DNA of 64,000 bases from a virus: IMG/VR virus record IMGVR_UViG_3300033149_002250, positions 1 to 64,000 of that record. One strand, 5' to 3'. Of the stretch, positions 35,386-56,623 are shown in pieces. Made by a program: the position numbers and the translations under genes. Below the pieces are notes generated by a model, which saw nothing but the letters and a program-made list of their open reading frames with translations, did no database searches and had not been told where the DNA came from. Numbering within the stretch: the first letter of the stretch is position 1; each line of letters begins with the position of its first letter.

Positions 35386-36477
35386 TCAGGCGTAGTTGTA
35401 GAGCTTCGCGACAGACTTCGGCTCGAAGTAAAGCTGGCCAAAAAAGCCGGCCGCGAACAGCCAAGCGTGCTGGTGAATGTCCCACTCTGGGCCGCGAACC
35501 GCGAACAACTGCTTGTACATGCAGTGCAGTTCCATGCGGTTGTAGTTGATGAGGTAGCCCGTGTTGGCGGGCACACCGTACTCGGTCACGATGGACACAC
35601 CATCCTGCTTGGCCCCCTCGAAGCCAAGGTCTTGAAGCTCCTTGTGGGGCACGATGATCTGCTGCTTGGCAGCCTGCTTGTTGAGGTAGTCAGCATACAG
35701 TCCGCCGGACAGGACGCAGACCTGCGGGCGCCCGGCCTTGCCGCCGGTGATGCTGCCCCAAATCACGCCCTGGCGGATCACCCGCTCGCAGGTTTCCAGC
35801 CAAGTAGTCGATCCCGAGCCGACCCAAGCCGTGCTACTCCAGTTGAGCAGCTTCGGGCTGATGTAGTCGAATACGGTGGAGCCGGTGCCGTCCGGCCAAT
35901 CCACCTGGAGGCTGTCGTTGGGGTAGGTGGAAAGGTCCTTCGACCAGGTTCCACCTTCGGCGCCAGGCACGGTTGACTTGCCGCAGTAGCTTCCGTTCGG
36001 GGCCGCGATCTTGTCTCCGGCCTCGCAGTCGCCGGCCGTCATCGGAGTCTCCAGGCCCCACAGCCTGGTCGGGTAGGTGGTGCCGTTGTTGTAGATTTCA
36101 GTGCCGAAGTTGTCCTCAAGGCTCTGCCGCATGTCACGCGCAACGGTATCGTAGCGATTGATGATCGCTTCGGTGCTGCGGTTCTTGAGGGTCTCCAGCT
36201 CGTCCATCGTGTCCGTCACCTTGTACCCGATCCAATCCAGGGTCAAGGTGCGGTACTTGTCGCTGGGTTGAAAATCCAGCACGCCGCCGGTATAGACGTT
36301 GGTTTCCGGCAGATCGAACTTCACGCGGCGGACCAGGTTCAGGCCGCTGGCGTTGTAAAAAATCCGCGCCCGCCGCCTGAGCATGGCGAAGTGGACCCGT
36401 TCGCGGAGCGTCAGGTCCGAGGCGCCCTTCATGTACTTGCTTATGGTCGTGTTGACCATAGCGGACCAGTCGGACAT
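35386..36477 (-). CDS. Major capsid protein
   Basis: 363 aa. N-terminal helix (MSDWSAMVNTTISKYMKGASDLTLRERVHFAMLRRRARIFYNASGLNL), then the beta-rich P-domain and a C-terminal block (GYLINYNRMELHCMYKQLFAVRGPEWDIHQHAWLFAAGFFGQLYFEPKSVAKLYNY) characteristic of one group of phage coat proteins. It lies between scaffold-like and decoration-like genes. HK97 fold expected. Confidence 0.82.
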   Translation of the reverse strand: MSDWSAMVNTTISKYMKGASDLTLRERVHFAMLRRRARIFYNASGLNLVRRVKFDLPETNVYTGGVLDFQPSDKYRTLTLDWIGYKVTDTMDELETLKNRSTEAIINRYDTVARDMRQSLEDNFGTEIYNNGTTYPTRLWGLETPMTAGDCEAGDKIAAPNGSYCGKSTVPGAEGGTWSKDLSTYPNDSLQVDWPDGTGSTVFDYISPKLLNWSSTAWVGSGSTTWLETCERVIRQGVIWGSITGGKAGRPQVCVLSGGLYADYLNKQAAKQQIIVPHKELQDLGFEGAKQDGVSIVTEYGVPANTGYLINYNRMELHCMYKQLFAVRGPEWDIHQHAWLFAAGFFGQLYFEPKSVAKLYNYA

Positions 36478-38621: not shown

Positions 38622-38799
38622 CTGAAAACCACCCCGGATTTCTCATTTTTTTGGGGGGTGTGCAACGGACGCAAAAAAGCCCACGCAACACCGACGAAAA
38701 CCCCACTTCCCCCATACTTCGCCCCAATCCTGTACCTTGAAAAAAATACACTGTCAACCCCCTCGTTCTTACACGTTGACACGGATACCAATGTGAGGA

Positions 38800-38830
38800 T
38801 GGACGGTTAACCATTTCCGAAGTTACACTG
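38800..38830 (+). promoter_or_regulatory. Promoter-like block 1 with GGTTAACC
   Basis: TGGACG (38800-38805), 18-base spacer, TACACT (38824-38829). The spacer begins with the palindrome GGTTAACC. The block is a near copy of 39041-39071, differing at four positions over about 29 bases. No gene follows closely, so it may serve a non-coding transcript or be a binding site. Confidence 0.4.
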
Positions 38831-39040
38831 GAGGCCCAAAAATTACCTCTTGTGGCAGGGTGAGGTCGCAAAACAAGCGTTTTGCTGCACAAAAGTGAAA
38901 TTGCCGGGCGCCCCTCTCGGCGGCCCACCACCAACACGCCGCAATCGACGCAACCACCTACCGCTAAAGCGCTTGCCCCAAACCCCAAACCATCACGCCC
39001 CCCTCTTCTCTACGGGTAGGGTTTAATAGCAACCGAGCTA

Positions 39041-39071
39041 TTGATGGTTAACCATTTCCGCCGTTATACTG
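39041..39071 (+). promoter_or_regulatory. Promoter-like block 2 with GGTTAACC
   Basis: TTGATG (39041-39046), 18-base spacer, TATACT (39065-39070); the better of the two blocks. GGTTAACC at 39046-39053 overlaps the end of the -35 and would let a dimeric regulator block it. Followed by the inverted repeat CTGTC/GACAG. Confidence 0.5.
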
Positions 39072-40869: not shown

Positions 40870-40965
40870 GCGCCCCCCCCTATTCTCCGAGCGCTCAAAC
40901 CCACGCCCCCTATTGCGCTTGCCGTAGGGGGTGGCGGTTTGCGCGCTAGCTCGGTGCGTGGCCGA

Positions 40966-41095
40966 GGTGCCCGGTGCTCGGTGCGTGGTGCCTGGCGCCC
41001 GGTGCCCGGTGCTCGGTGCGTGGTGCCTGGCGCCCGGTGCCCGGTGCTCGGTGCGTGGTGCCTGGTGCGTGGTGCGTGGTGCGTGGTGCGTGCCC
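40966..41095. repeat. Tandem GGTGCNN heptamer array
   Basis: A 35-bp unit is repeated exactly at 40966-41000 and 41001-41035 and begins again at 41036. Each unit is five degenerate heptamers (GGTGCCC, GGTGCTC, GGTGCGT, GGTGCCT, GGCGCCC). The array ends in about four GGTGCGT heptamers. It lies in a gap with no gene. Confidence 0.85.
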
Positions 41096-41201
41096 TACCG
41101 ATAGGTTGTTTGGGTTATTGGGCTGCCCCCCCGTTGAACTAGTACCCCATAGCTAGCACTCAATCCGCCGATATGGTGGTGGTGCTGGCCGAGGGGGATT
41201 G

Positions 41202-43703: not shown

Positions 43704-44507
43704 ATGAGAGTCAGAATCGACGGAGTACACACGTTTTGGTCGGCCGGGCCGGCCAAACGTGGGCGCTTGTTGGAGGCCCTGCGGGGCATCGGGATGGAGC
43801 ATCTTCTGCCGCCAGAGACTACGGACCAAGCGGCTCTCCGTGAGGCCCTGCGGTCCATCAAGGGCCGCAATGAGCGAATAGAGCCTCTCAAGAAGCCCAA
43901 CAAAAACGGGTATCAGGTCACCGTGGTCCTCCGCGGCGAGGACCAAAACGACCATGTGTGCAGCTTCACGGCCAGGGTGGTTAACTGCACACTGGAGGTC
44001 AAGCACGGCTACGTGGACACCCGGCGTCTCCAGAATGCCTTCATGGAGGCCAAGGCTACCACGCTTGGGCCGGCGGTGAGTGCCACATTGCGGGCTGTGG
44101 CAACGGCTTTAGGCGGCGAGTGCCTGCATCCAGGGCACTACTGGATACCGCAAGACCAAGCGGCCACCTGGGAGGCGTTCGCGTCTCAGGTTGAGGAAGT
44201 TACCGGAGGCAAGGTTTACCGCCTCCAGTACGTCATGGACGAGGAGGGCGTCCGGGCGTTGCGTGACGCCCTGATTGAGAACATGGCCAAGGAGGCCGCA
44301 GACCTGACGGAGCGGGTCTGCAAGGAGCCTGCTGGAGAGCACAACATGCAGGGCCGAAAAGAAGCCGTTGAGCGGCTGGCATCCCGTGTCGAGAGACACC
44401 GGGAGATTCTCGGCGAGTGGGCCGAGCAGATGGACGGCTTGGTTCGCGTTATGCGGGCCAAGCTGGTCGAGACCGTCATGCAGGACATGGCCGACCTGAC
44501 CATCTGA
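43704..44507 (+). CDS. Hypothetical protein next to MoxR/VWA genes
   Basis: 267 aa, mixed alpha/beta with a C-terminal helical half (residues 175-265: NMAKEAADLTERVCKEPAG..., VERLASRVERHREILGEWAEQMDGLVRVMRAKL). Possibly the DUF6744-type proteins seen in phages, but I am not sure. The structured leader and its place before the MoxR gene suggest it works with that pair. Confidence 0.55.
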   Translation: MRVRIDGVHTFWSAGPAKRGRLLEALRGIGMEHLLPPETTDQAALREALRSIKGRNERIEPLKKPNKNGYQVTVVLRGEDQNDHVCSFTARVVNCTLEVKHGYVDTRRLQNAFMEAKATTLGPAVSATLRAVATALGGECLHPGHYWIPQDQAATWEAFASQVEEVTGGKVYRLQYVMDEEGVRALRDALIENMAKEAADLTERVCKEPAGEHNMQGRKEAVERLASRVERHREILGEWAEQMDGLVRVMRAKLVETVMQDMADLTI

Positions 44508-44518
44508 ATCGCTTTGTG

Positions 44519-44542
44519 GGGCGGTGGACGGAGCCGCCGCCC
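44519..44542 (+). promoter_or_regulatory. Leader hairpin with ACGGAG loop
   Basis: Nine-bp stem GGGCGGTGG/CCGCCGCCC (one G-U) with loop ACGGAG, 30 bases before the MoxR start. ANGGA in a hairpin loop is the CsrA recognition form, and this phage encodes a CsrA. A GGA in AAAAGGAGCAC just before the ATG could be the second site of a dimer. Confidence 0.5.
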
Positions 44543-44572
44543 TGCTTCCCCGATCCCGAAGAAAAGGAGCAC

Positions 44573-45715
44573 ATGATGGTTTGTAACGCTGGCTACTGGC
44601 TGACCGCCCAGACCGGGCGGATTGTGCCACTCGCCGTCGGTCTTCCAGGGTGCGCCAAGACCAAATCAGTCGAGGCGTTCGCTCGGGCGCTTGGCAGGCC
44701 GATCTATACGCTGATCGGTTCGATCAGGGAGCCCGCGGACATTGGCGGCTACCCGTATTTGACACGGGATGAGCGCACCGGCGCCTACATGGCGCTGGTT
44801 CCGCCGAAGTGGGCCGCCAATACCCTGGAGGGCGGCCCGTGGGTGATCTTTCTGGATGAGCTTACGACATGCCCGCCTGCCGTACAGGCGGCCATGTTGG
44901 CGGTGATCGCCGAAAAACGTGTCGGTGATCTGGTGCTGCCGGAGGGCACGCTCATCCTCGCAGCTGCCAATCCGCCAGAGGTGGCGGCGAACGGGTTTGA
45001 TCTCACTCCGCCAATGGCCAACCGACTCGCCCATTTCCAATGGGAGTTGGACCGCAAAGGCTGGCTTGCCGGGATGGCCGCGGGCATGCGGTGGGAAGCG
45101 CCGAGCTTCCCGATTCTCCCGGAGGACTGGGAAAAGTACGCCCCAATGAACGGGGCGAGAGTGGCCGCCTTCCTGGATAGGCGACCGGAGTTGATGGAGA
45201 AGTTCCCAGAGGACCGGGCCGCACAAAGCGGGCCGTGGCCGTCCTGGCGAAGCTGGACGGCAGCGGCTTGGGGCATGTCGGCGGCCGATGCGGTCGGCGC
45301 TGAGCCCGCCTTGCGATTCCAGATCGTCAAGGCGTGTGTCGGCGAAAGCGCCGGCCACGAGTACCAAACTTGGGAGACTAACCTTGATCTCCCGGACCCC
45401 GAAGTGTTGCTGAACAACGCCCGGGATGCCCGGCAACGTGGCGCAGAGCCCGACTGGACGCCCCCAGAGCGTGCCGACAAGCTGATTGTTACGCTCTCTG
45501 CCGTGGCGGACCGTGTTATCAACCACGGCAACACCAAAGAGCGGTGGGAAGCCGCTGCGCTGCTCCACAAGGTCGCCGCCAAAACCAGCATTGAATTGGC
45601 CGCCGCCAGGATGGCGACCTTGTTCAAGAATCAGCCCCAAGGGGTTGAGCACGACCCCGAGTTTATCGACCAGCTTGCCGACCTGTTGCGGCGGGCTGGC
45701 GTGGTAGGAGGGTGA
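44573..45715 (+). CDS. MoxR-type AAA+ ATPase
   Basis: 380 aa (first ATG; a second follows immediately). Walker A GLPGCAKT (GxPGxAKT form), Walker B WVIFLDELTTCPPAVQAAML, sensor segment GTLILAAANPPE, and PPMANRLAHF. MoxR ATPases act with VWA-domain proteins to load metals or remodel complexes; the next gene, 3 bases away, is such a protein. AAAAGGAGCAC precedes the start. Confidence 0.85.
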   Translation: MMVCNAGYWLTAQTGRIVPLAVGLPGCAKTKSVEAFARALGRPIYTLIGSIREPADIGGYPYLTRDERTGAYMALVPPKWAANTLEGGPWVIFLDELTTCPPAVQAAMLAVIAEKRVGDLVLPEGTLILAAANPPEVAANGFDLTPPMANRLAHFQWELDRKGWLAGMAAGMRWEAPSFPILPEDWEKYAPMNGARVAAFLDRRPELMEKFPEDRAAQSGPWPSWRSWTAAAWGMSAADAVGAEPALRFQIVKACVGESAGHEYQTWETNLDLPDPEVLLNNARDARQRGAEPDWTPPERADKLIVTLSAVADRVINHGNTKERWEAAALLHKVAAKTSIELAAARMATLFKNQPQGVEHDPEFIDQLADLLRRAGVVGG

Positions 45716-45718
45716 GCG

Positions 45719-47332
45719 ATGGCAGACAAACCGATCGAGTTCGCCGAGGCCCGGATCAAGGCGTCGTTTACGATGCCTTACCTGACGACCGGACTGATGG
45801 CGTTGCAGCCTGTCCGCCGGCCAGGTCTGGGCACAATGGCCGTTGACAAGTACGGCCGTTGCTATTACGACCCCGAATGGCTGGGCCGCCAGCCGGTTGA
45901 GGACGCGGCCTTTGTGGTGCTGCACGAAACGCTCCATGTAGTGCTGCGGCACGCCAGACGGGCGAGGGACATCATCGGCGAGCGGCCTGCTGAGTCGGAT
46001 CGTCGGCTCTGGAACATCGCCTGCGATATGGTGGTAAACCAGAGCTTGCTGTCCACGCTTCAACCCAGCAAGCAGCTCAGCGAAGGGATCATCACCCACC
46101 GAAGGTATGGTCTCCCGCCGAACCTGACGGCTGCCGAATACTACGCCCTCCTGCGGCAGCAGAAGGAGGGCGAGGATGGTGGCCAAGGGGAGGAGGATGG
46201 GCAAGCTGGCGCCCAAGGGAACCAGCAGTCCCAATCCGCCGAGGCCGATGACGACAGCCAGCGGGGGGACGGCCAAGCCGGCGGCCAATCCCCAGCCGGC
46301 TCCACTGGCCAGTCCGAAAACAAGCAAGCCGACGAGTCTGCCGGGCAGCCCAGCGACCAAGGCGAGCCAGAGAGCGGCGGCAACGGTGGCGACGCTAGCG
46401 AGGCTGGCGGCGAAGCTGGCGGCACGAGCGGCAGCGGAGCCAGAGATGAGAGCACGGAGGGCGGGGCCGCCGCTGGCGGCCCCCAGCCAGACACGAGCGA
46501 CGGGGCGCCCTACAGCGGCCCAAGCCCGTCTGAAACGCCCGGAGAGGCCGGCTCCGCCTCGGACGGCGTGCCCAAGCCCTGGGAGGCACCCGCCCCCAAG
46601 AACGGCACAGGAGGCGATCCTGGAGGCTCTAGGCCCGGCCAGCAGGGGCCAAGCGAAGTGCCCGGAATGGAGGAATACGAACTCGACGGCTTGGCTCACC
46701 ACGTCGCCAAGCAGATCGAGGAGTGGCACTCGTCTGGACGCGGGACGGTGCCGGGCAACCTGCTCCGGGAGGCCCGGAGGATCGTCCGCCCCAAGGTGGA
46801 CCCGATCCGGGAGTTTGCGGCAAAGTGCCGGTTTGCCCTGTCGCAAACTACGGGCTTCGGCGAGTACACTTACCGGCGGCCCAACCGCCGCACTCCGCCT
46901 GGTGTGGGCGTGGTGATGCCCGCCCACCGACAGCCGGTTCCCAACGCCACTCTCATCGTGGACACGTCCGCCTCAATGGAGGACCGCGACGTGGGCTTGG
47001 CGATGGGCGTGGTGGCCCAAGCAGTGAAGGCGCTGCCCAACCAAGCTGGGGTCCACGTGATCGCTGGCGACACCTACGCGGCGGCTGCCAAGCGCGTTTT
47101 TCGGCCGGAGCAAGTGGAATTGGCTGGCGGGGGCGGCACCGACATGGGGAACATCATCGAATATGCCGCCACCCAAAAGCCCCGCCCGGACGTGATCTTC
47201 GTCATCACGGACGGAGAGACCCCATGGGGTACGGAGCCCCCCGGAATCCGTGTTGTTGCGTGCCTTACCAGGCGAACGCATTTTGACCAAGTGCCAGCTT
47301 GGATCGACGCAGTGTGCTTGGAGGAGCCATGA
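45719..47332 (+). CDS. Metallopeptidase-like/VWA protein (DUF2201 type)
   Basis: 537 aa. N-terminal zinc-peptidase motif HETLH (69-73) with WNIACDMVVN downstream, as in DUF2201 proteins. Residues about 145-300 are a Gly/Ser/Glu/Gln low-complexity linker. The C-terminal VWA domain has the MIDAS sequence DTSAS (415-419), and GGGGTDMG and VIFVITDGE. The HExxH end plus VWA end in one protein beside MoxR is the standard partner layout. Target unknown. Confidence 0.85.
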   Translation: MADKPIEFAEARIKASFTMPYLTTGLMALQPVRRPGLGTMAVDKYGRCYYDPEWLGRQPVEDAAFVVLHETLHVVLRHARRARDIIGERPAESDRRLWNIACDMVVNQSLLSTLQPSKQLSEGIITHRRYGLPPNLTAAEYYALLRQQKEGEDGGQGEEDGQAGAQGNQQSQSAEADDDSQRGDGQAGGQSPAGSTGQSENKQADESAGQPSDQGEPESGGNGGDASEAGGEAGGTSGSGARDESTEGGAAAGGPQPDTSDGAPYSGPSPSETPGEAGSASDGVPKPWEAPAPKNGTGGDPGGSRPGQQGPSEVPGMEEYELDGLAHHVAKQIEEWHSSGRGTVPGNLLREARRIVRPKVDPIREFAAKCRFALSQTTGFGEYTYRRPNRRTPPGVGVVMPAHRQPVPNATLIVDTSASMEDRDVGLAMGVVAQAVKALPNQAGVHVIAGDTYAAAAKRVFRPEQVELAGGGGTDMGNIIEYAATQKPRPDVIFVITDGETPWGTEPPGIRVVACLTRRTHFDQVPAWIDAVCLEEP

Positions 47333-47965: not shown

Positions 47966-49081
47966 ATGGAAGACATACCGCAAGGTGCGAAAGTGATCCG
48001 CGACGGTCGCACGGGCAGACTCCGTGCGCGCACAGTGGATCTAGGGTGCTTGGCAACCAAGGTCATGCGCAAGGCTGCTGACGGAAAAGAGTGGTGGGCG
48101 GCCGACGTTGACTACGGCGGCGTTTATTGCAGCAGCTACGGCTACCCTGCCTACACAGAGATCGGGTTGGCGGTAGCTTGGCGGCTGAAAAGCGGCAAGG
48201 TTCACTGCGCACTCTATGGGGGCGAAATGAACGCCCACGCAGCCACCGACGGGGGGGCTGCTAGTACACTGATGCCTTGCGCCAGGCCCCTGTTCGACGA
48301 GCGCTACGGCGCCAAGAAGCGCAGGCAAGCGGCCCGGGAGATGGTCCGCCAAGCAAAAGCCGACTACTACAGGCTCGGGGCGGAGATAGTCGTGTGGTCG
48401 GACGGACCCAGCAGCGAAAGGAAGGTGCTGCGCCGCTATGGGGCGATGCTGATAAGGCACGCCCCGGTAGTGCGGCTTCTCTTGAATCCGGCGAAGGACC
48501 GCGCGCTGCTCGCCCTAGCCTGGAACGAAGGCGAAGTATGCGGGGCCTATGTCCGCAAGGTCCGCGCGAGCACCCTCGGAGCCATGGCGAGCCAGCGAGC
48601 TACAGCCGAAAGGCTTCTACATGGCGCCGGCGAGTATTTCGACCGGCGGATCAATGCGCAGCGCAGGCAGGCAGCGATGAAGGCAGCGTTGGCGGCTGCC
48701 AAGCGCTTGGTGCATGCGAAAATCTCCGTGACAGCCAACAAGCAGGCTCACGCGAGGCACGATGTGAGCCTGCAAACCAGGCTCGTGCGATTCGCATGCA
48801 AACGACAGGGCATCAAGCCCCCCGCGGCCCGGAAGATCGAGTCCGGGGAGTTTGGCAAGGTGGGGCCGTGGATTGGCCGCATGTCACGCGGCCTCGTACA
48901 GCAATGGGGGCTAGTAGCTTACGTGCCCTACGGGGACTACCGAGATTTGGAGGAGTGGGAGTCTCGGCGTTACCGCGATGAGGGCCAACGCCTGATGATT
49001 CACGCGGCCCTCCACCATCCGCGAGGCCACGTCTTGCGGGTGGTGGCGGTGCCGGAACTGACCAAGAAGCTGGGGGTGTGA
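47966..49081 (+). CDS. Hypothetical basic protein
   Basis: 371 aa. N-terminal KOW-like beta segment (AKVIRDGRTGRLRARTVD), central helix rich in Lys/Arg/Ala (GAKKRRQAAREMVRQAKADYYRL and QRRQAAMKAALAAAKRLVHAKISV). Basic overall, so RNA or DNA binding is likely. AAAGGAGCACAGAC before the ATG. Confidence 0.6.
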   Translation: MEDIPQGAKVIRDGRTGRLRARTVDLGCLATKVMRKAADGKEWWAADVDYGGVYCSSYGYPAYTEIGLAVAWRLKSGKVHCALYGGEMNAHAATDGGAASTLMPCARPLFDERYGAKKRRQAAREMVRQAKADYYRLGAEIVVWSDGPSSERKVLRRYGAMLIRHAPVVRLLLNPAKDRALLALAWNEGEVCGAYVRKVRASTLGAMASQRATAERLLHGAGEYFDRRINAQRRQAAMKAALAAAKRLVHAKISVTANKQAHARHDVSLQTRLVRFACKRQGIKPPAARKIESGEFGKVGPWIGRMSRGLVQQWGLVAYVPYGDYRDLEEWESRRYRDEGQRLMIHAALHHPRGHVLRVVAVPELTKKLGV

Positions 49082-49289: not shown

Positions 49290-49300
49290 CTGTTTTTCCG

Positions 49301-49347
49301 CCCGCACCGGAGCTTTTCCAGTACCGAGTCTGTGCGGGAGACTCGGC
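49301..49347 (+). ncRNA. Loop-pairing RNA element 1
   Basis: CCCGCAC (49301-49307) is complementary to GTGCGGG (49332-49338). The latter is the loop of a hairpin CCGAGTCT/AGACTCGG (49324-49331 with 49339-49346). The two pairings interlock, so they form a pseudoknot or alternate. It ends 19 bases before the ATG at 49367, right before AGGAGAGGAG. Confidence 0.72.
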
Positions 49348-49366
49348 AGCAGGAGAGGAGCACAGC

Positions 49367-49831
49367 ATGAGTGCATACGTGTGCGAAAAGGCCCACATCA
49401 GGTATCTGGTGACGGCTGCCACGATGGCGAACGATGGGTTTGGCCCACTGACCTACCACCACAGAGGCCGCATCTACACCGTGGACCCGTCGGACGTGGA
49501 CGGGCTATCGCGTCTCGGCCAGATGCTGTGGGATGCAAACGTGAAAAGCGTTCGCTGCCGCTACCCCGATGCCCCCGATGATGAGTTGCCTGGTGCGCGA
49601 CAGTGGCCGTTCAAGTATGGGAAACATCGGGGCTTCCGGGGTGATGTCGAGCCCGTCCAGGTGCTCAAATCTATTGCGTGCTACGAGTACCAAAGCTGTG
49701 AGGCACCAGATTGGGAGGCAAGCGAGGCATATGCGTTCTGCCAAGCTCTGCGAACTGCCATGATCGACATGCTGCCGGGGTACGAGGCGGCCGTGTGGGG
49801 CGTCCCGCCAGAAATCGGCAACGAGGAGTGA
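49367..49831 (+). CDS. Hypothetical protein
   Basis: 154 aa from MSAYVCEKAHIRYLV. The pattern KAHIRYLVTAATMANDGFGPLTYHHRGRIYTVDPSDVDGLSRLGQMLWDANVKSVRCRYPD resembles a small phage protein family (domain of unknown function) also seen in plasmids and prophages. Preceded by loop-pairing element 1. Confidence 0.65.
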   Translation: MSAYVCEKAHIRYLVTAATMANDGFGPLTYHHRGRIYTVDPSDVDGLSRLGQMLWDANVKSVRCRYPDAPDDELPGARQWPFKYGKHRGFRGDVEPVQVLKSIACYEYQSCEAPDWEASEAYAFCQALRTAMIDMLPGYEAAVWGVPPEIGNEE

Positions 49832-49848
49832 ACGCACCATAACTCCCG

Positions 49849-49896
49849 CCCGCACCGGAAACATTTCCTGGCCGAGCCTGTGCGGGAGGCTCGGCC
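49849..49896 (+). ncRNA. Loop-pairing RNA element 2
   Basis: CCCGCAC (49849-49855) complements the loop GTGCGGG (49880-49886) of hairpin GCCGAGCCT/AGGCTCGGC (49871-49879 with 49887-49895). Compared with element 1, one pair in the hairpin changes from T-A to C-G on both sides. The linker can form a GGAA/TTCC mini-hairpin. Ends 18 bases before the ATG at 49915. Confidence 0.72.
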
Positions 49897-49914
49897 CAGA
49901 GATTGGACATTGCA

Positions 49915-50208
49915 ATGAATCAGTCCGACTTGAACTACGTCTCAATGCTGCGGCTGGCCGAGGCTTACGGCCACTTGCTTGCAGCCAGGGACTGGCTGTC
50001 TGGAACGAAGGATTGGGCACAGCCCAATGGGGTATCATCCCATTCGTTGGACCTGAATGCCCAAGCGAAACGGCAACTTCGCGTGCACTTGAATCGGGCA
50101 ATTCTACTGATGCAGTATTTGTTCGCTCCGCCGGCGGAGCTGCGCGACGGAGTGGTAACATCTGACACTCTTTCCAAAGGAGGCCATGACTCAACCCAAC
50201 ATACTTGA
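49915..50208 (+). CDS. Hypothetical protein, paralogue of 53856 gene
   Basis: 97 aa. LRLAEAYGHLLAARDWL...AQAKRQLRVHLNRAILLMQYLFAPPAELRDG is closely related to the protein at 53856-54098 (LNLAHAYAHVLLSRDWL...ARKQVKAHLEKAAHLMEAVFTPPPELQG). No clear ribosome site precedes the ATG; RNA element 2 lies there instead, so initiation may depend on it. Function unknown. Confidence 0.65.
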   Translation: MNQSDLNYVSMLRLAEAYGHLLAARDWLSGTKDWAQPNGVSSHSLDLNAQAKRQLRVHLNRAILLMQYLFAPPAELRDGVVTSDTLSKGGHDSTQHT

Positions 50209-50376
50209 CGGCTGTCTGTGTGGCCCGCCACAGCTTCGCCCGACTATTCGGCAGGGGAGGCACGGCGGCTGCGTGCGGAATACGCGGCGGCCGAGAAAGC
50301 CTGCCGGGAGGCCCGCGAGGCGCTTAAACCGTTCGGCCAGTACGACTTTTGGCTATTGGGAGGCAAGCATGAGTAA
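50186..50376 (+). pseudogene. Small gene with probable -1 frameshift
   Basis: AAAGGAGG precedes ATG at 50186 (MTQPNILDGCLCGPP). After about 50225 the protein-like frame is the -1 frame: ATASPDYSAGEARRLRAEYAAAEKACREAREALKPF, ending at 50376 and overlapping the next start by 8 bases. The zero frame stays open but gives Arg/Pro-rich nonsense before joining the next gene. Either a real slip site around TGTGGCCCG, or a damaged gene or sequence error. Confidence 0.5.
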
Positions 50377-50761
50377 CTGCGAGGCACACATGAGCGTAAA
50401 GCAAGCCGCCGAGTGGCTGGACCATATCGTGACAGAGACTTTGGAGCGACTCGGCGATCTGCCGGAAGGGTACGGGTCTGTGAACGAGGCAAGCCTGCAA
50501 GTGATTCGGGCAGCCGAACGGGAGTGGCCCGAATGCTGGCTCCTCAGCATCAACGGGCCGCCAGACGATCCAGACAGGATTTACTGGCGGCATAGGGGCG
50601 AGCCCGTCTATACGTGCGGGGCCGACTGGGTACTACCCCGCCAACCCATCGGGATTGCGGAGGCCGTCCTGCGTTTCCGTCACAACCCAACTTTGGCAGC
50701 AGCCGAGGAGAATTGGCGGCGGCTCGAAGAGATGGGCGGAATCCGCCTGTTCTGGAGCTAG
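50369..50761 (+). CDS. Hypothetical protein
   Basis: 130 aa from MSNCEAHMSVKQAAEWLDHIVTETLERL; start coupled to the stop of the frame-shifted gene. Contains WLLSINGPPDDPDRIYWRHRGEPVYTCGADWVLPR. Unknown function. Confidence 0.6.
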   Translation: MSNCEAHMSVKQAAEWLDHIVTETLERLGDLPEGYGSVNEASLQVIRAAEREWPECWLLSINGPPDDPDRIYWRHRGEPVYTCGADWVLPRQPIGIAEAVLRFRHNPTLAAAEENWRRLEEMGGIRLFWS

Positions 50762-50775
50762 CGAACCCAATGCCG

Positions 50776-50820
50776 CCCGCGCCGGCTATCATCACGTCGG
50801 CGGCGCGCGGGGCCGCCGGC
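50776..50820 (+). ncRNA. Loop-pairing RNA element 3
   Basis: CCCGCGC (50776-50782) complements the loop GCGCGGG (50805-50811) of hairpin CGGCGGC/GCCGCCG (50798-50804 with 50812-50818; two more pairs possible). Versus element 5 the first pairing changes G to A on one side and C to T on the other. Ends 19 bases before the ATG at 50840. Confidence 0.75.
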
Positions 50821-50839
50821 CATAGTGGAGGGACGAGCA

Positions 50840-51064
50840 ATGACGAAACGGGCTATAAGGGCCAGGATGGTGGTGTTTGCCCCGGAACTTCTTGCGGCGT
50901 GCAAGGCTCTGCTGGAAGAACACCGCCTGTTTCCGGTCAACGGCGGATGGCGGTGTCCATTCTGTGCGGTCGAAGCGCCGGGCGTAGTGGGGTTTCCCCA
51001 CGCGGAGCAATGCCCGGTAGTGCGGGCAAGGGAGGTAATCCGTAAGGTCGAAGGTCGGCAGTAA
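50840..51064 (+). CDS. Small zinc-finger-like protein
   Basis: 74 aa from MTKRAIRARMVV (GGAGGGACGAGCA upstream; the GTG at 50825 lies inside the ribosome site). N-terminal helix (FAPELLAACKALLEEHRLF) and a Cys-Cys-His-Cys centre (CPFCAVEAPGVVGFPHAEQCP). Related layouts occur in phage proteins of unknown function. Confidence 0.65.
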   Translation: MTKRAIRARMVVFAPELLAACKALLEEHRLFPVNGGWRCPFCAVEAPGVVGFPHAEQCPVVRAREVIRKVEGRQ

Positions 51065-51085
51065 CCTACCGCGGAGGGCGAGCAA

Positions 51086-51379
51086 ATGCTTTACCGAATC
51101 AAAAACAGCCGTTTGGTGCGCTTTGTTGCCGACGGCACACTTTGTGGCCACGAGTTGCAGGCCGTCTGGGCGCAGCTCAAGCCCGGCGACTTGGTGGCTG
51201 TCGGCGAATACCTGGACGAGAACCTGTTTACGCTGCCGCGTCCGGGTTGTATTTTCAGGACGCGCCATCGCCTACCAGAGGGGCCTTGGCGGCTGGAACG
51301 GACCAAAGCCCACCGCGTGGAATCCGTGGGACGGGTCTATCGTGTAGAGGAGCGTTTTTATCGGTTCCTCCCCATCTGA
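51086..51379 (+). CDS. Hypothetical protein
   Basis: 97 aa, beta-rich (RLVRFVADGTLCGHELQAVWAQLKPGDLVAVGEYLDENLFTL). GGAGGGCGAGCAA precedes the start. No recognised family. Confidence 0.6.
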   Translation: MLYRIKNSRLVRFVADGTLCGHELQAVWAQLKPGDLVAVGEYLDENLFTLPRPGCIFRTRHRLPEGPWRLERTKAHRVESVGRVYRVEERFYRFLPI

Positions 51380-51389
51380 GTACCCCCCG

Positions 51390-51432
51390 CCCAGGCGGAC
51401 TAAACCTGTCGGCGTGGCCTGGGACGCGCCGA
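51390..51432 (+). ncRNA. Loop-pairing RNA element 4 (divergent)
   Basis: CCCAGGC (51390-51396) complements GCCTGGG (51417-51423), which lies in the loop of CGGCGTG/CGCGCCG (51410-51416 with 51425-51431, one G-U). Sequence differs almost everywhere from the other copies while the interlocked pairing is kept. Ends 24 bases before the ATG at 51457. Confidence 0.65.
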
Positions 51433-51456
51433 CACGCCACGAAAAAGGAGTCGCAA

Positions 51457-51687
51457 ATGAACAGAGTTGTAACTACGGCGCGTGCAATCCTGGGCAACGG
51501 CAGATGCGCGATCATGGGGTACGATGCTCGCGGCAATATGCTGGTAGGCGTAGTCTGCAAGCCAAAAAGGATAAGCGCTTGGCTTAATTCCCGCGACCCG
51601 CAGGGCGACCTGCGACGTTGCCAGCAAAAATTAGGCCAAACAGAACGCGATTGCTCGATCGGAGAAAGAAATGGCCACGCAGGTTGA
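51457..51687 (+). CDS. Hypothetical small protein
   Basis: 76 aa (MNRVVTTARAILGNGRCAIMGYDARGNMLVGVV...). AAAAAGGAGTCGCAA before the start. Overlaps the next gene by 17 bases. Unknown function. Confidence 0.6.
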   Translation: MNRVVTTARAILGNGRCAIMGYDARGNMLVGVVCKPKRISAWLNSRDPQGDLRRCQQKLGQTERDCSIGERNGHAG

Positions 51688-51979
51688 GCACTTAGCCCAG
51701 TCCATTGCCGACGCAGTAATTCGGCTGGTGCGTGCAAAACAAGCACAGGAGGCCGCCACCGAGGATTTGCGCCGCGCGGTTTGGGGATGGTATCAGCGGC
51801 GCTGTCGCCGAAGAGAGCCGGTTGGCATTTGCTGCACAATCGAGCTGGACATTGACGACCTGAACGGCCGGTATGCCGTTGCCTGCGAGTGGAACGCTGG
51901 CTACAACGGATTCCGCCGCGTCAGAGTAAGCAAGGTTGAGAGCTACGATCCTAGTGAAATCGGCATCGGCGTTGACTGA
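51671..51979 (+). CDS. Hypothetical protein
   Basis: 102 aa; helical N-terminus (VEHLAQSIADAVIRLVRAKQAQEAATEDLRRAV), then Cys/Arg-rich turn and beta C-terminus. Unknown function. Confidence 0.6.
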   Translation: MATQVEHLAQSIADAVIRLVRAKQAQEAATEDLRRAVWGWYQRRCRRREPVGICCTIELDIDDLNGRYAVACEWNAGYNGFRRVRVSKVESYDPSEIGIGVD

Positions 51980-52012
51980 AACACGGGAGTTATGCTAAGC
52001 GGCCCATGGACG

Positions 52013-52053
52013 CCGCGCCCCCGCTCGGTGCGGGGCCGAGTTAGGGGGCGCGG
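52013..52053 (+). promoter_or_regulatory. Nested GC-stem leader 1
   Basis: Outer 10-bp stem CCGCGCCCCC/GGGGGCGCGG (52013-52022 with 52044-52053) around inner CTCGG/CCGAG with 7-nt loop TGCGGGG. Part of the outer 5' strand (CCCCGC) can alternatively pair with the loop. Related to leader 2 at 52290. Lies 33 bases before the ATG at 52087. Confidence 0.6.
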
Positions 52054-52086
52054 TGGCCTTTTGCCGCCCACGAAAGGGAGCACGAC

Positions 52087-52275
52087 ATGGCATACCGCCA
52101 ACGACACTGCGGCCACTGCCACACCTGTGGCACCAAGCTAAAGCCTTGCCTTGACGGGGAAGAGTGGTGCCCGAAATGTCAAGCTTACAGGCGCTACCCT
52201 TCGCACGGCTGGTCGTGGCGTGCTTGTAGCTCTCAAGACGAGGTATGTCCGCCGCTTCACAGCGGCAAACGGTAG
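52087..52275 (+). CDS. Small zinc-ribbon protein
   Basis: 62 aa. CxxC-HTC and CPKC pairs (HCGHCHTCGTKLKPCLDGEEWCPKC) make a zinc ribbon. GGGAGCACGAC before the ATG. Probably nucleic-acid binding. Confidence 0.65.
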   Translation: MAYRQRHCGHCHTCGTKLKPCLDGEEWCPKCQAYRRYPSHGWSWRACSSQDEVCPPLHSGKR

Positions 52276-52289
52276 CCGACTCACACCGT

Positions 52290-52326
52290 CGCGCCCCGCC
52301 CGGTGTGGGGCTGGGCCTGGGGCGCG
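52290..52326 (+). promoter_or_regulatory. Nested GC-stem leader 2
   Basis: Outer 8-bp stem CGCGCCCC/GGGGCGCG (52290-52297 with 52319-52326) around inner GCCCGG/CTGGGC with 7-nt loop TGTGGGG. Same plan as leader 1, with inner-stem sequences changed on both sides. Ends 23 bases before the ATG at 52350. Confidence 0.6.
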
Positions 52327-52349
52327 GCGGGCTTTCAGAAGGTGCTATC

Positions 52350-52583
52350 ATGCAGCTTCGAGTCTGGAGCGTAACGGCCCCATGGCCGATTGTCTGCGCA
52401 AGTTGCCACAAGGGAATCGTGTGCTTGCCATACGATTCTCAGCTGCCCGAAACGGTGAATCATCAGCGGGCAATCGAAGCACTCTGCAAGGCATTCGGCC
52501 TGTGGCACGAGTGCTTTCAACCTCCCGCCACCCCATTCAGTCGGGTTACTTCCGATTCGGAGGGCACAGACAATGACCGATGA
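52350..52583 (+). CDS. Hypothetical small protein
   Basis: 77 aa from MQLRVWSVTAPW. One CxxC (CASC) and an acidic C-terminus. The start follows leader 2 (AGAAGGTGCTATC), a weak ribosome site. Unknown function. Confidence 0.5.
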   Translation: MQLRVWSVTAPWPIVCASCHKGIVCLPYDSQLPETVNHQRAIEALCKAFGLWHECFQPPATPFSRVTSDSEGTDNDR

Positions 52584-52668
52584 TCCGGGAATAGTCGTTC
52601 GCTGGAAAAGCGTTGGTTGGGCAGATGCGATTCTGGCCGCGATAGTCCGAGAAAGCGCGGGCGGGTAG
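52573..52668 (+). CDS. Possible 31-aa peptide
   Basis: 31 codons (MTDDPGIVVRWKSVGWADA...) overlapping the previous gene by 11 bases. No strong ribosome site apart from AGGGCACAGACA. Included because it fills the gap in the operon pattern; it may be untranslated. Confidence 0.3.
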   Translation: MTDDPGIVVRWKSVGWADAILAAIVRESAGG

Positions 52669-52731
52669 CGGCCGGCAACTCTAGCTCGCATCAAACCTTG
52701 ACTCCCGCCTGCACCTAGAAAGGAGCGTATG

Positions 52732-52920
52732 ATGATGTCACTCGGGACTCTACAAATTCGGGAGCGCAGCGATGGCCGATTCAGCTGGTCCTTCGAGGCG
52801 TTCGTGAACGATGAACGTCAATTGGTCTTTGGCATTGCGCCCAGTTGGCACGCGGCGCTGGAGGAAGGCACAGCCAGGCAAGCCGCCATTAAAGGAGAAA
52901 CCCATGAAAACCAATCCTAA
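52732..52920 (+). CDS. Hypothetical small protein
   Basis: About 62 aa; three consecutive ATGs (52729, 52732, 52735) follow AAAGGAGC, of which the second or third has better spacing. Beta-rich (SLGTLQIRERSDGRFSWSFEAFVNDERQLVFGIAPSW). Overlaps the next gene by 17 bases. Confidence 0.55.
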   Translation: MMSLGTLQIRERSDGRFSWSFEAFVNDERQLVFGIAPSWHAALEEGTARQAAIKGETHENQS

Positions 52921-53218
52921 CAAGTGGGAGCAGCAGGCAATCGACACAGCCCCACAGGGGACGTGGGGTTTGGTGGTGACACCTTGGGCCGCCCCCCGAG
53001 TGTGCGGCGTGGCGGCCGATTGGGGCCAAGCGAGCCGGTACGTGTGGCACTACACGGCCGGGGGCTGGCGGCTCACCGACAAACAGGTAGCGGACTTCCG
53101 CCACTCCAAGCGGGCAGCCCTGGCCGCAGAGGTGCGAGAAGCGATCCGCCGAGCCGGAGGCGACCAGCAGGCGGAATCCATCGACGAGATCGTGGATCGA
53201 GCTTGGGAGTTTCAGTGA
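52904..53218 (+). CDS. Hypothetical protein
   Basis: 104 aa from MKTNPNKWEQQAIDTAPQGTWGL, with AAAGGAGAAACC before it. Trp-rich beta half (WHYTAGGWRLT) then a helical C-terminus (KRAALAAEVREAIRRAGG). Unknown function. Confidence 0.6.
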   Translation: MKTNPNKWEQQAIDTAPQGTWGLVVTPWAAPRVCGVAADWGQASRYVWHYTAGGWRLTDKQVADFRHSKRAALAAEVREAIRRAGGDQQAESIDEIVDRAWEFQ

Positions 53219-53237
53219 CCTACGCAAGGAGTTTGTT

Positions 53238-53555
53238 GTGACCGGACTTACTTTCGAGTGCTCTGTGCGAAGTTGCGATGCCAAGGCTACGTGCGACTTC
53301 CATGGCACGCCTTTGTGTGCCCACCACCGCAAACGGGCGCAATTGGTCCGATGCGGAGCCGTCCGAATTAACAGGGCCGGCAGGAAGGTCGGGCTTATTC
53401 TTGGTGATTTTGTGGCGGTTCGCCCTACTGCCGTGCAATGGCGCAGTGCACCCGCAAAGATCAGACAACTCGAAGGGCAACCCCACCCCGTCACAGGCGA
53501 GACGCTGCGCCATGCCCTCACACTGGACGGAGTGTGGGCGCGATGGTGGGAGTGA
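53238..53555 (+). CDS. Zinc-finger-like protein, GTG start
   Basis: 105 aa from GTG at 53238 behind AAGGAG. Cys/His pattern C-x4-C-x5-C-x2-H (CSVRSCDAKATCDFHGTPLCAHH) like a B-box or RAG-type finger. The rest is beta-rich. Unknown function. Confidence 0.6.
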   Translation: MTGLTFECSVRSCDAKATCDFHGTPLCAHHRKRAQLVRCGAVRINRAGRKVGLILGDFVAVRPTAVQWRSAPAKIRQLEGQPHPVTGETLRHALTLDGVWARWWE

Positions 53556-53572
53556 GAAGAAAGGAGAATCGC

Positions 53573-53761
53573 ATGAGGAGATGGCGAGTAAAGCTGGTGC
53601 TATACCAGCCAGAGCGAGAGCCCTGGACGGAGGTAAGAACGATTGATGCCGCCACCAAACATGGCGCCCGGCGGCTGGCCTTCGAGGATGCCCGGATGGC
53701 GAACCTCTGGGTGAAACGCATCGTGTACGTCGAGCCCGCGAGCCGGCGGAGGCTTAAGTGA
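53573..53761 (+). CDS. Hypothetical small protein
   Basis: 62 aa; AAAGGAGAATCGC before the ATG. The layout WRVKLVLYQPEREPWTEVRTIDAATKHGARRLAFEDA...VKRIVYVEPA is that of a small beta-alpha-beta unit common in phage genomes. Unknown function. Confidence 0.6.
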   Translation: MRRWRVKLVLYQPEREPWTEVRTIDAATKHGARRLAFEDARMANLWVKRIVYVEPASRRRLK

Positions 53762-53792
53762 AGGCTTGCGCACACTGTAGATGTTTCGTCCG

Positions 53793-53837
53793 CCCGCACC
53801 GGCTACAATCACGTCGGCGGTGTGCGGGACCGCCGGC
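53793..53837 (+). ncRNA. Loop-pairing RNA element 5
   Basis: CCCGCAC (53793-53799) complements the loop GTGCGGG (53822-53828) of hairpin CGGCGGT/ACCGCCG (53815-53821 with 53829-53835). Differs from element 3 by compensatory changes in both pairings (C-G to T-A, G-C to A-T). Ends 18 bases before the GTG at 53856. Confidence 0.75.
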
Positions 53838-53855
53838 AAAGCGGAGGATACTACC

Positions 53856-54098
53856 GTGGATGAAAGACGCTTACTCAATCTGGCGCATGCTTACGCGCAC
53901 GTGTTGCTCAGCCGGGATTGGCTGACAGAGCAGGACCGTTTGACCGAAACCGCCAGGAAGCAGGTCAAGGCGCACTTGGAGAAAGCCGCTCACCTGATGG
54001 AAGCGGTATTCACGCCACCGCCGGAATTGCAGGGTACGGTTGAAATAATCCCTTGCGAGTCCAGCGAGGCAGCCACCAGCCAGTTGGGGAATGAGTAA
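53856..54098 (+). CDS. Hypothetical protein, paralogue of 49915 gene
   Basis: 80 aa from GTG at 53856 (GCGGAGGA upstream). Closely related to the protein at 49915-50208, and like it preceded by a loop-pairing RNA element. Helical, with TPPPELQ near the end. The stop overlaps the next start (TAATG). Confidence 0.65.
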   Translation: MDERRLLNLAHAYAHVLLSRDWLTEQDRLTETARKQVKAHLEKAAHLMEAVFTPPPELQGTVEIIPCESSEAATSQLGNE

Positions 54099-54376
54099 TG
54101 AAATTGCGAGAAAAACTCAGTCGCGTGGTAGAGCATGGGGAGACACTGCGGTTTCGCGGTGTGGAGTTATTCCGCTTGACCGAAAGACGGGAATGGTTCG
54201 ACCACCGGGGAAATCGGCATACCGCCGAGCATGGCGCCGTTTTCTGGCGGTGGGTTGGAGAGTCGGGCGACCAAGGCTCGCTGATTCCAAGTTGGCACCC
54301 AGAGCGATTTGACGCAACGGCACTCGTTCGGGTGCTGTTTCGCAATCGGCGATACTTTCTGGGGGGAAGCAAATGA
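54098..54376 (+). CDS. Hypothetical protein
   Basis: 92 aa, beta-rich and basic (EHGETLRFRGVELFRLTERREWFDHRGNRHTAEHGAVFWRWVG). Coupled to the gene before. Unknown function. Confidence 0.6.
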   Translation: MKLREKLSRVVEHGETLRFRGVELFRLTERREWFDHRGNRHTAEHGAVFWRWVGESGDQGSLIPSWHPERFDATALVRVLFRNRRYFLGGSK

Positions 54377-54391
54377 GCAATCAGCCAGCCG

Positions 54392-54436
54392 CCCGCGCCG
54401 GCTATCATCACGTCGGCGGTGTGCGGGACCGCCGGC
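54392..54436 (+). ncRNA. Loop-pairing RNA element 6
   Basis: CCCGCGC (54392-54398) pairs with the loop GTGCGGG (54421-54427; one G-U) of hairpin CGGCGGT/ACCGCCG (54414-54420 with 54428-54434). Almost identical to elements 3 and 5. Ends 17 bases before the GTG at 54454. Confidence 0.75.
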
Positions 54437-54453
54437 CAGTGGAGGATAACCAA

Positions 54454-54906
54454 GTGCAAGAAGCTCTCGACCAGCTGATGTATGGGCTACAGGAAGCCAA
54501 GGCCCAACTGTACTGCCACGTAGAGGCTTTCAAGGCAGCGAGCAATCCCGTGGAGGCCGTGCAGGAACACTCGGCGAAAGCCCTGCACGCCCATCACCTT
54601 CTCCAGGAGCTTTCGGCAGTCGAGGAGTCTTTAGCTCACCTGGGGCTTGACGGCAAGTACGACCTCATCGGCGAAATGCTGGTTCGCACGGCGCAAACTG
54701 CGTCGTATCGGCTTGAAGTTTCCAGCGCCTATATGCCGATACACCCCGAACCTCAGAGCGCGTGCTGCGCTTTAGCCAGATTCCAGGCGCAGCAATCGTT
54801 CACCAGGATCATGCGGAAGCTGGCCGAGACGTGGGAACGGGTGGCCCGTGGAGAGCTTGAGGAAGAAAAGCTCCGCGAGGACGCCAGGGATGCCCTGCGA
54901 TACTGA
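54454..54906 (+). CDS. Hypothetical helical protein
   Basis: 150 aa from GTG at 54454 with GGAGGATAACCAA upstream. The frame is open back to an ATG at 54373, but that would translate the RNA element, so GTG is preferred. Long helices (QEALDQLMYGLQEAKAQLYCHVEAFKAASN, FTRIMRKLAETWERVARGELEEEKLREDARDAL). Unknown function. Confidence 0.6.
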   Translation: MQEALDQLMYGLQEAKAQLYCHVEAFKAASNPVEAVQEHSAKALHAHHLLQELSAVEESLAHLGLDGKYDLIGEMLVRTAQTASYRLEVSSAYMPIHPEPQSACCALARFQAQQSFTRIMRKLAETWERVARGELEEEKLREDARDALRY

Positions 54907-55810: not shown

Positions 55811-56623
55811 ATGACTGTTCGCAACGGCACTCCGCTGTGCTACATTTACGTGCGGGTTTCCCACGCCAAGGGCTTTGAGTCCGTAGAGACGCAGGCCAAG
55901 GAGGACAAGAGCTTGCAAGCCCAGGCCGCTCGCTGTCTGGCCTATTACGAGAGCCGGGTAAAACACAAGGAGGTCGAGCTATACCCGGAGGTAATCGTTG
56001 AGCCACGTGTCTCCGCCAGAGAGACTCCGCTACGGAAGCGTCCAAAGGGCAAATGGCTCAACTCCGTTCTGCGCCACGGCGACCACGTGATCTTCGCTTA
56101 CTTCGACAGGTCTGTTCGGCAGCTACGAGATTGGGCTAACCTGCTACCAGAGTGGCAGGCCAGGGGAATCAACATCCACTTTGTTGATCTCGACATCGAC
56201 CTCTCCACCCCCCAGGGGCAGATGATCGCCAACATCATGGCCTCCGTCGCCCAATGGGAAAGCGACCAGCGCAGCGAACGATGCAAAGCCGTGGCTGCCT
56301 GGCTCAAAGCAAACGGCCGATGCTACGGCCCGACGCGACGGCCAGGCTACAAGGTGATCGGGCCGAAGGGGAATCGCCGGGTGGTTCACGACCACTCGCA
56401 GTTCCCGATCCTGCGGAAGATTGAGAGACTTCGCCATCAGGGTCTCAGCTGGGAGAAGATCAGCCAGATCGTGGAGAGCCAAGAGTGCAAAAAGCGAGGC
56501 GCGCAGTTCAGCCCCAGTGCCTTCTTTAAGCGCACTTGGACTCCGTGGCGGTGTCAAGCCGCGTACCGCAACTGGCAGGAGATCAAACGGGAGTTGGGCA
56601 TCGAGGAGGATGCCGCCAGCTAA
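55811..56623 (+). CDS. Serine recombinase (resolvase/invertase type)
   Basis: 270 aa. Catalytic N-terminal domain: YVRVS with Ser17, FDRSVRQLRD (98-107, equivalent of the DRxxR active-site arginines) and TPQGQMIANIMASVAQWESDQRSER, the long E-helix start. A DNA-binding HTH follows (about 190-255). It is shorter than large serine integrases, so inversion, resolution or a small integrase are all possible. GAGGAGGAGCACTCA before the ATG. It converges with, and overlaps by 4 bases, the HTH gene on the other strand. Confidence 0.85.
   Translation: MTVRNGTPLCYIYVRVSHAKGFESVETQAKEDKSLQAQAARCLAYYESRVKHKEVELYPEVIVEPRVSARETPLRKRPKGKWLNSVLRHGDHVIFAYFDRSVRQLRDWANLLPEWQARGINIHFVDLDIDLSTPQGQMIANIMASVAQWESDQRSERCKAVAAWLKANGRCYGPTRRPGYKVIGPKGNRRVVHDHSQFPILRKIERLRHQGLSWEKISQIVESQECKKRGAQFSPSAFFKRTWTPWRCQAAYRNWQEIKRELGIEEDAAS

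What the first reader, a model, noticed from the sequence alone, without database searches (positions are those of the whole stretch)
49301..54436. Six copies of a loop-pairing RNA element, each at a fixed distance before a start codon
Seen: elements at 49301, 49849, 50776, 51390, 53793 and 54392. In each, a 7-nt strand is complementary to the loop of a hairpin 15-22 nt downstream, and the element ends 17-24 bases before ATG or GTG. Pairs covary: CCCGCAC/GTGCGGG versus CCCGCGC/GCGCGGG; CGGCGGC/GCCGCCG versus CGGCGGT/ACCGCCG; CCGAGTC/GACTCGG versus CCGAGCC/GGCTCGG; copy 4 differs widely but keeps both pairings. Inference: a pseudoknot or a two-state switch controlling translation, perhaps a new RNA class used by one phage to coordinate small genes.
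Basis: partly seen in the sequence, partly recalled or inferred. Interest (0 to 1): 0.92.

Follow-up and report, generated by a model that had tools for sequence, protein, structure and literature searches.

The report
Repeated pseudoknot leaders before phage genes
A bacterial virus, probably of planctomycetes, carries six copies of a small folded RNA in which a hairpin's loop pairs with a strand just upstream, each copy sitting 17-22 bases before a gene; the fold looks real and is kept by matching mutations, but what it does is untested.

Summary
With one strict rule (7-nt strand, 8-18-nt linker, 7-bp hairpin with a 7-8-nt loop complementary to the strand), the 64-kb window has exactly six hits: the six copies. 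There are none elsewhere on either strand, against 0.96 per 100 kb in 12 related phage sequences. Copies 1 and 2 differ at 11 of 50 positions: nine lie in the 13-nt linker, and the other two are one compensatory pair (T-A to C-G). One loop-strand pair runs A-U, G-U, G-C across copies, which fits + strand RNA. Every copy lies between a stop and a start codon, ends 17-22 nt before the start, and leaves the Shine-Dalgarno region outside.

The linker pairs strongly with the Shine-Dalgarno only in some copies, so a conserved sequestration switch is not supported. No Rfam match, and no copy in the collections scanned; related phages (capsid about 40-45% identical, one a planctomycete prophage) lack it.

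Best reading: a lineage-specific cis-acting mRNA pseudoknot (possibly an intramolecular kissing loop) heading small translation units, most likely a shared translational operator. The structure is well supported; the function is inferred. It works like the T4 gene 32 operator but is not shown to be related.

The parts
49298..49347 (+). Copy 1 (A1): strand CCCGCAC 49301-49307, linker, 8-bp hairpin, loop GTGCGGG; before ATG 49367
49846..49895 (+). Copy 2 (A2): strand CCCGCAC, 10-bp hairpin, loop GTGCGGG; before ATG 49915
   Evidence: differs from copy 1 in the linker and in one compensatory pair only
50773..50820 (+). Copy 3 (B1): CCCGCGC/GCGCGGG, 9-bp hairpin closed by C-G; before ATG 50840
51387..51434 (+). 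Copy 4 (C): divergent, CCCAGGC/GCCTGGG, 10-bp hairpin with 8-nt loop; before ATG 51457
   Evidence: weak match to a model built without it (12.9 bits)
53790..53837 (+). Copy 5 (B2): CCCGCAC/GTGCGGG; before GTG 53856
54389..54436 (+). Copy 6 (B3): CCCGCGC/GTGCGGG with one G-U; before GTG 54454
52701..52720 (+). Decayed half-copy resembling the 5' half of copy 2 (actcccgcctgcacctagaa), hairpin lost; before ATG 52729
   Evidence: by eye against copy 2
52008..52058 (+). Second type of leader hairpin (D1), long GC-rich stem, pentaloop GCGGG; before ATG 52087
   Evidence: fold z -3.3
52286..52330 (+). Second type of leader hairpin (D2), homologous to D1 by eye with one compensatory pair and several G-U exchanges; before ATG 52350
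   Evidence: fold z -2.1
49367..49831 (+). Gene behind copy 1, unknown function
49915..50208 (+). Gene behind copy 2, paralogue of 53856-54098 (36% identity, E 2e-12)
50840..51064 (+). Gene behind copy 3, unknown function
51457..51687 (+). Gene behind copy 4, unknown function
53856..54098 (+). Gene behind copy 5, paralogue of 49915-50208
54454..54906 (+). Gene behind copy 6, unknown function

Best explanation
Each element is a cis-acting structure in the 5' leader of a small translation unit of one phage mRNA. A GC-rich hairpin of 8-10 bp presents a 7-nt loop that pairs completely with a 7-nt strand (itself able to sit in a small CCG...CGG hairpin) upstream across an 11-16-nt linker, giving a pseudoknot or intramolecular kissing loop. 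It stops 17-22 nt short of the start codon, at the upstream edge of the ribosome footprint, with the Shine-Dalgarno region left outside. Most likely it is a common recognition site, read by a phage or host RNA-binding protein or by the ribosome, that sets or coordinates translation initiation of the genes behind it, in the manner of the T4 gene 32 operator but in six copies. Shown: the pairing potential, its conservation by compensatory change, and its placement. Inferred: the RNA strand, formation in the cell, any binding partner, and the direction of the effect.
For: Six strict hits in the window are exactly the six copies; background 0.96 per 100 kb. 98.9% of pair cells paired, six pairs with double-sided changes, covariation score 0.389 vs 0.170 in shuffles (0/500), slid controls 35-43% paired. 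Copies 1 and 2: 9/13 linker positions differ, 2/37 elsewhere, and these two are one compensatory pair. Loop-strand pair 6 runs A-U, G-U, G-C, the intermediate being a pair only on the + strand. Copy 4 changes three loop-strand pairs together and keeps pairing. Copies 5 and 6 lie in different reading frames. Constant 17-22-nt spacing to the start codon while the distance from the upstream stop varies 7-28 nt. A clear Shine-Dalgarno lies in the spacer in five of six.
Against: Only one genome, five related copies plus one divergent: no independent homologues, so covariation could not be tested across species. The A/B loop-strand helix varies at one pair only. Nested folding energies are not unusual (z -1.7 to +0.2). 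No expression data, no known binder. Two collinear relatives manage without the element.
Confidence: 0.5

Rival explanations
1. The elements are mRNA processing, stabilising or insulating structures between gene units (block nucleases, or block ribosomes and translational coupling from the gene upstream) and carry no regulatory signal.
For: They occupy most of the larger gaps between the small genes, while genes 17-21 nt apart or overlapping have none; two gaps hold a different strong hairpin instead, as if any strong structure served.
Against: A plain hairpin would do for that; here the loop and an upstream strand are conserved as well, with compensation. The distance to the downstream start is tighter than to the upstream stop.
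Confidence: 0.25
2. A ligand- or temperature-driven two-state switch: the linker or other parts pair with the Shine-Dalgarno when the pseudoknot opens.
For: In copy 1 the linker GCUUUUCC can pair with GGAGAGGAGC around the Shine-Dalgarno (7.0 expected pairs) and copy 6 has 7.4 expected pairs.
Against: No such pairs in copies 4 and 5, and shuffled linkers do as well in 10-96% of trials. No conserved unpaired core that could form a ligand pocket: the linker diverges.
Confidence: 0.1
3. DNA-level sites: recombination, replication or protein-binding repeats (a serine recombinase gene lies about 1 kb downstream).
For: Imperfect palindromes of about 50 bp in several copies near a recombinase gene (55811-56623).
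Against: The arms change sequence between copies while keeping complementarity, unlike a sequence-specific duplex site. All copies have one orientation and a fixed distance to start codons. The G-U intermediate is a pair on the + strand only. Relatives with a similar recombinase lack the repeats.
Confidence: 0.08
4. Only the hairpin matters; the loop-strand complementarity is coincidence or sequence conservation without pairing.
For: Loop-strand pairing anywhere upstream has P about 0.02-0.09 per copy, and five copies share one sequence there, with one varying pair.
Against: 20 of 20 positions of strand, loop and flanking CCG/CGG are unchanged between copies 1 and 2 while 9 of 13 linker positions changed; copy 4 changed both sides together; the varying pair stays paired in every copy.
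Confidence: 0.07

Closest known systems
T4-type phage gene 32 translational operator (mRNA pseudoknot; PMC535899, PMC3014915)
   Same: A leader pseudoknot upstream of the Shine-Dalgarno of a phage gene, within about 70 nt of the start codon, with the ribosome-binding site itself outside the fold.
   Different: One copy before one gene, followed by an unstructured A+U-rich stretch with UUAAA repeats, and a known binder (gp32). Here six copies before different genes, a short 17-22-nt spacer, no such repeats, no known binder, and an unusual topology with a fully paired 7-nt loop.
Start-associated sequences (SAS/ESAS) of Cluster K mycobacteriophages (PMC3203893)
   Same: Many copies in one phage, confined to the non-structural arm, placed just upstream of start codons; about half have imperfect inverted repeats with a spacer; function unknown, a role in translation initiation suggested.
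   Different: The SAS core GGGATAGGAGCCC is a conserved 13-bp sequence; here the sequence of the stems changes with compensation and the loop pairs upstream.
ColE1 RNAI/RNAII kissing loops (from general knowledge)
   Same: Two hairpins with 7-nt loops that pair over the whole loop.
   Different: Between two RNAs in ColE1; here within one leader, with an upstream hairpin of only 3-5 bp that may not persist.

Membership tests
T4 gene 32-type operator | Pseudoknot in the leader, upstream of the Shine-Dalgarno | tested here: met
   (pairing potential and covariation, not a solved structure)
T4 gene 32-type operator | Unstructured A+U-rich stretch with UUAAA/UAAA repeats between pseudoknot and start codon | tested here: not met
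   17-22-nt spacers without such repeats
T4 gene 32-type operator | Precedes and is bound by the phage's own single-strand-binding protein | tested here: not met
   none of the genes behind the elements that were scanned matches a PHROG; binding itself cannot be tested with these tools
Cluster K SAS/ESAS | 13-bp core GGGATAGGAGCCC next to the start codon | tested here: not met
   leaders read do not contain it
Any Rfam 15 family | Score above the family's gathering threshold | tested here: not met
   none in the window; nothing above chance at relaxed threshold over 49-55 kb
Frameshift or readthrough pseudoknot | Fixed short spacer after a slippery site or stop, with the two genes in a consistent frame | tested here: not met
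   stop-to-strand spacing varies from 10 to 31 nt; no shared slippery heptamer by eye and stop-to-start distances not consistently multiples of 3
Intrinsic terminator | Hairpin followed by a run of T | tested here: not met
   none of the six copies listed

The most novel reading that the evidence does not exclude
A new class of phage RNA in which one pseudoknot design, repeated before many unrelated small genes and maintained by compensatory evolution, forms an RNA regulon: one phage-encoded regulator, or mutual loop-strand pairing between copies on the same mRNA, sets the translation of the whole accessory cassette at once.
Probability: 0.3. Interest if true: 0.8.

Novelty: new variant of a known kind. 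Interest (0 to 1): 0.6.

Why it matters
Few phage leader pseudoknots with a role in translation are known; [quoted passage not shown] A six-copy set in one genome is a ready-made natural mutagenesis series: stems, linkers and downstream genes differ while the loop-strand helix is kept. If it binds a phage protein it would give a portable, tunable translation control for planctomycetes, where genetic tools are scarce.

Tried and rejected
Homologue searches without success: blastn of the region in 50,697 phage records; pattern scans of IMG/VR and of 84,980 species genomes, hits judged chance after reading them; covariance model R1 on 294 and 297 planctomycete genomes, best hits 30-34 bits and without the full loop-strand pairing, the top one inside a coding frame; R1 on the planctomycete prophage, on 14 related IMG/VR records and on the last 1.35 kb of the phage record. 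The paralogous pair of small genes has no match in 392 planctomycete genomes. Single-protein searches with terminase, capsid, MoxR and 47966-49081 failed in IMG/VR; the way in was the planctomycete prophage found by terminase and a capsid alignment with it. Rejected: Shine-Dalgarno switch as a shared feature, terminators, stop-codon readthrough or frameshifting (frames and spacing differ), protein-coding repeat (different frames).
Full report
WHAT THE WINDOW IS. The window is bases 1-64000 of a 65,354-base virus record. Head and tail genes lie on the - strand: portal 28908-31019, major capsid 35386-36477, terminase 31457-33235. The + strand carries a MoxR-like ATPase and a DUF2201/VWA gene at 44417-47332, then a cassette of small unknown genes (49-55 kb), then a serine recombinase (55811-56623). 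No close relative is in the phage collection. A planctomycete genome (G371, drawn from the phylum of a 'Planctomycetia' record) carries a related prophage: terminase 42%, capsid 43-45%, portal 38% identity. Fourteen IMG/VR records have a relative of its capsid protein. The host is therefore most likely a planctomycete (inference).

THE OBSERVATION. All six elements exist as described. With a 7-nt strand, an 8-18-nt linker and a hairpin of at least 7 bp whose 7-8-nt loop contains the complement, the + strand of the window has exactly six hits, the six copies, and the - strand none. Eleven related phage records and the prophage give 11 hits in 1.15 million strand-bases, 0.96 per 100 kb. Six in about 5 kb is far outside that background. 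Looser criteria are not discriminating.

ANATOMY. Each copy reads CCG-strand(7)-CGG-linker-stem-loop(7)-stem. In five copies the strand is CCCGCAC or CCCGCGC and the loop GTGCGGG or GCGCGGG. Because the strand is flanked by CCG and CGG, it can itself be the loop of a small hairpin of 3-5 bp; the nested fold of copy 1 shows it. The pairing would then be loop-to-loop, a kissing interaction using all seven bases of the downstream loop. Whether the small hairpin persists when the helix forms is not known: its three core pairs never vary. Copy 4 has CCCAGGC pairing with GCCTGGG in an 8-nt loop on a 10-bp stem. In classical H-type geometry a third linker of 0-1 nt would be too short to cross a 7-bp helix, so a stacking arrangement like that of kissing loops, with the long first linker spanning both helices, is the more plausible one (inference from general knowledge of pseudoknot geometry, not modelled here).

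EVIDENCE FOR SELECTION ON THE FOLD. On the five A/B copies, 98.9% of pair cells are standard pairs (shuffled 88.4%; slid by 1-3 columns 35-43%), six pairs have changes on both sides, and the covariation score is 0.389 against 0.170 (0 of 500 shuffles). The tool warns that relatedness alone can exceed shuffles, so I lean more on two comparisons. Copies 1 and 2 differ at 11 of 50 positions: nine in the 13-nt linker, the other two being the partners of one stem pair, T-A against C-G (Fisher p 1.3e-5 for linker versus rest). And the sixth loop-strand pair is A-U in copies 1, 2 and 5, G-U in copy 6 and G-C in copy 3: the intermediate is a pair on the + strand and a mismatch on the - strand. The opposite case, an A-C mismatch on the + strand, occurs once, at the outermost stem pair of copy 1. 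Copy 4 changes loop-strand pairs 4-6 together and keeps all of them. A covariance model built without copy 4 finds it only weakly (12.9 bits, E 0.24), so its kinship rests on position, the CCGCCC start and the shared stem base. The genes behind copies 2 and 5 are paralogues of about 36% identity, yet their elements keep the same strand and loop, which suggests long-term constraint or homogenisation between copies.

NOT PROTEIN CODING. Copies 5 and 6 are nearly identical but fall in different frames of the open frames that run through them (ORFs 53781-54098 and 54373-54906).

POSITION. The elements lie between a stop codon (7-28 nt upstream) and a start codon 19, 19, 19, 22, 18 and 17 nt downstream. 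The Shine-Dalgarno, clear in five of six (copy 2 has none obvious), lies in that interval. Gene pairs that overlap or lie 17-21 nt apart have no element. Of the other larger gaps, two hold strong hairpins of a second type (52008-52058, 52286-52330), one holds a decayed half-copy (about 52701-52720), and one, 50208-50369, has none unless an overlapping short frame there is a gene. The elements thus head small translation units. No sigma-70-like promoter or terminator pattern is associated with them.

MECHANISM. The hairpin stops at the upstream edge of a ribosome footprint and does not include the Shine-Dalgarno. Linker pairing with the Shine-Dalgarno region is strong in nested folds of copies 1 and 6, partial in 2 and 3, absent in 4 and 5, and not clearly better than with shuffled linkers; a sequestering switch is therefore not the shared principle. 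The best-supported reading is a common recognition structure in the translation initiation region. A regulator that binds it could block or promote 30S binding at several genes at once, as gp32 does at one (PMC535899; PMC3014915). A passive role in mRNA stability or insulation is the strongest rival.

DISTRIBUTION. No Rfam family matches. Exact-pattern scans of IMG/VR and of one genome per species for 84,980 species gave only unrelated hits. Model R1 found nothing convincing in two draws of 294 and 297 planctomycete genomes, which may overlap, in the related prophage or in 14 related viral records, two of which (G405, G406) share the MoxR/DUF2201 region as well. The element is therefore lineage-specific within what could be searched.

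NOVELTY. It works like known phage leader operators but meets the definition of none: the T4 gene 32 features other than the leader pseudoknot are absent, and the SAS core of Cluster K mycobacteriophages (PMC3203893) is absent. I rate it a new variant of a known kind, with confidence of about 0.85 in the structure and about 0.5 in the function.

Noticed in passing
L109:11181-14156 (G405, IMGVR_UViG_3300009285_000883) and L114:15100-19290 (G406, IMGVR_UViG_3300025073_000048): Arrays of period 37 nt with two constant blocks (about TGrTTCArTC and TTGGCTGCGmTC) separated by variable 7-9-nt stretches, more than 20 units in each of two related phages; 37 is not a multiple of 3, so probably not coding. 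Absent from the window and nearly absent from the other relatives.
   Followed up: partly
window 62923-62963: Two parS-like palindromes (TGTTCCACGTGAAACA and TGTTTCACGTGAAAC) next to a ParB_N-like gene at 60396-61076(-): a possible phage partition system.
   Followed up: partly
window 61024-62277 (-): Protein with a weak match to TnpB/OrfB (NCBIfam E 5.7e-6 but 25.9 bits against a cut-off of 100; Pfam OrfB_IS605 E 0.046): possibly a divergent or domesticated relative.
   Followed up: no
window 40931-41105: Tandem GGTGC-based repeat (GGTGCCCGGTGCTCGGTGCGTGGTGCCTGGC...) in a gap before the + strand genes.
   Followed up: no
window 60110-60147 and 60175-60212: Perfect 38-bp direct repeat 65 bp apart.
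   Followed up: no
window 38799-38830 and 39040-39071: Repeated ATGGACGGTTAACCATTTCCG...TTACACTG with a GTTAAC palindrome in the long divergent intergenic region 38.3-39.9 kb: possible operator/promoter pair between the two gene arms.
   Followed up: no
window 52008-52058 and 52286-52330: Second family of strong leader hairpins with a 2-nt bulge and loop GYGGG, complementary to an adjacent upstream CCCGC, in front of two cysteine-rich small genes.
   Followed up: partly
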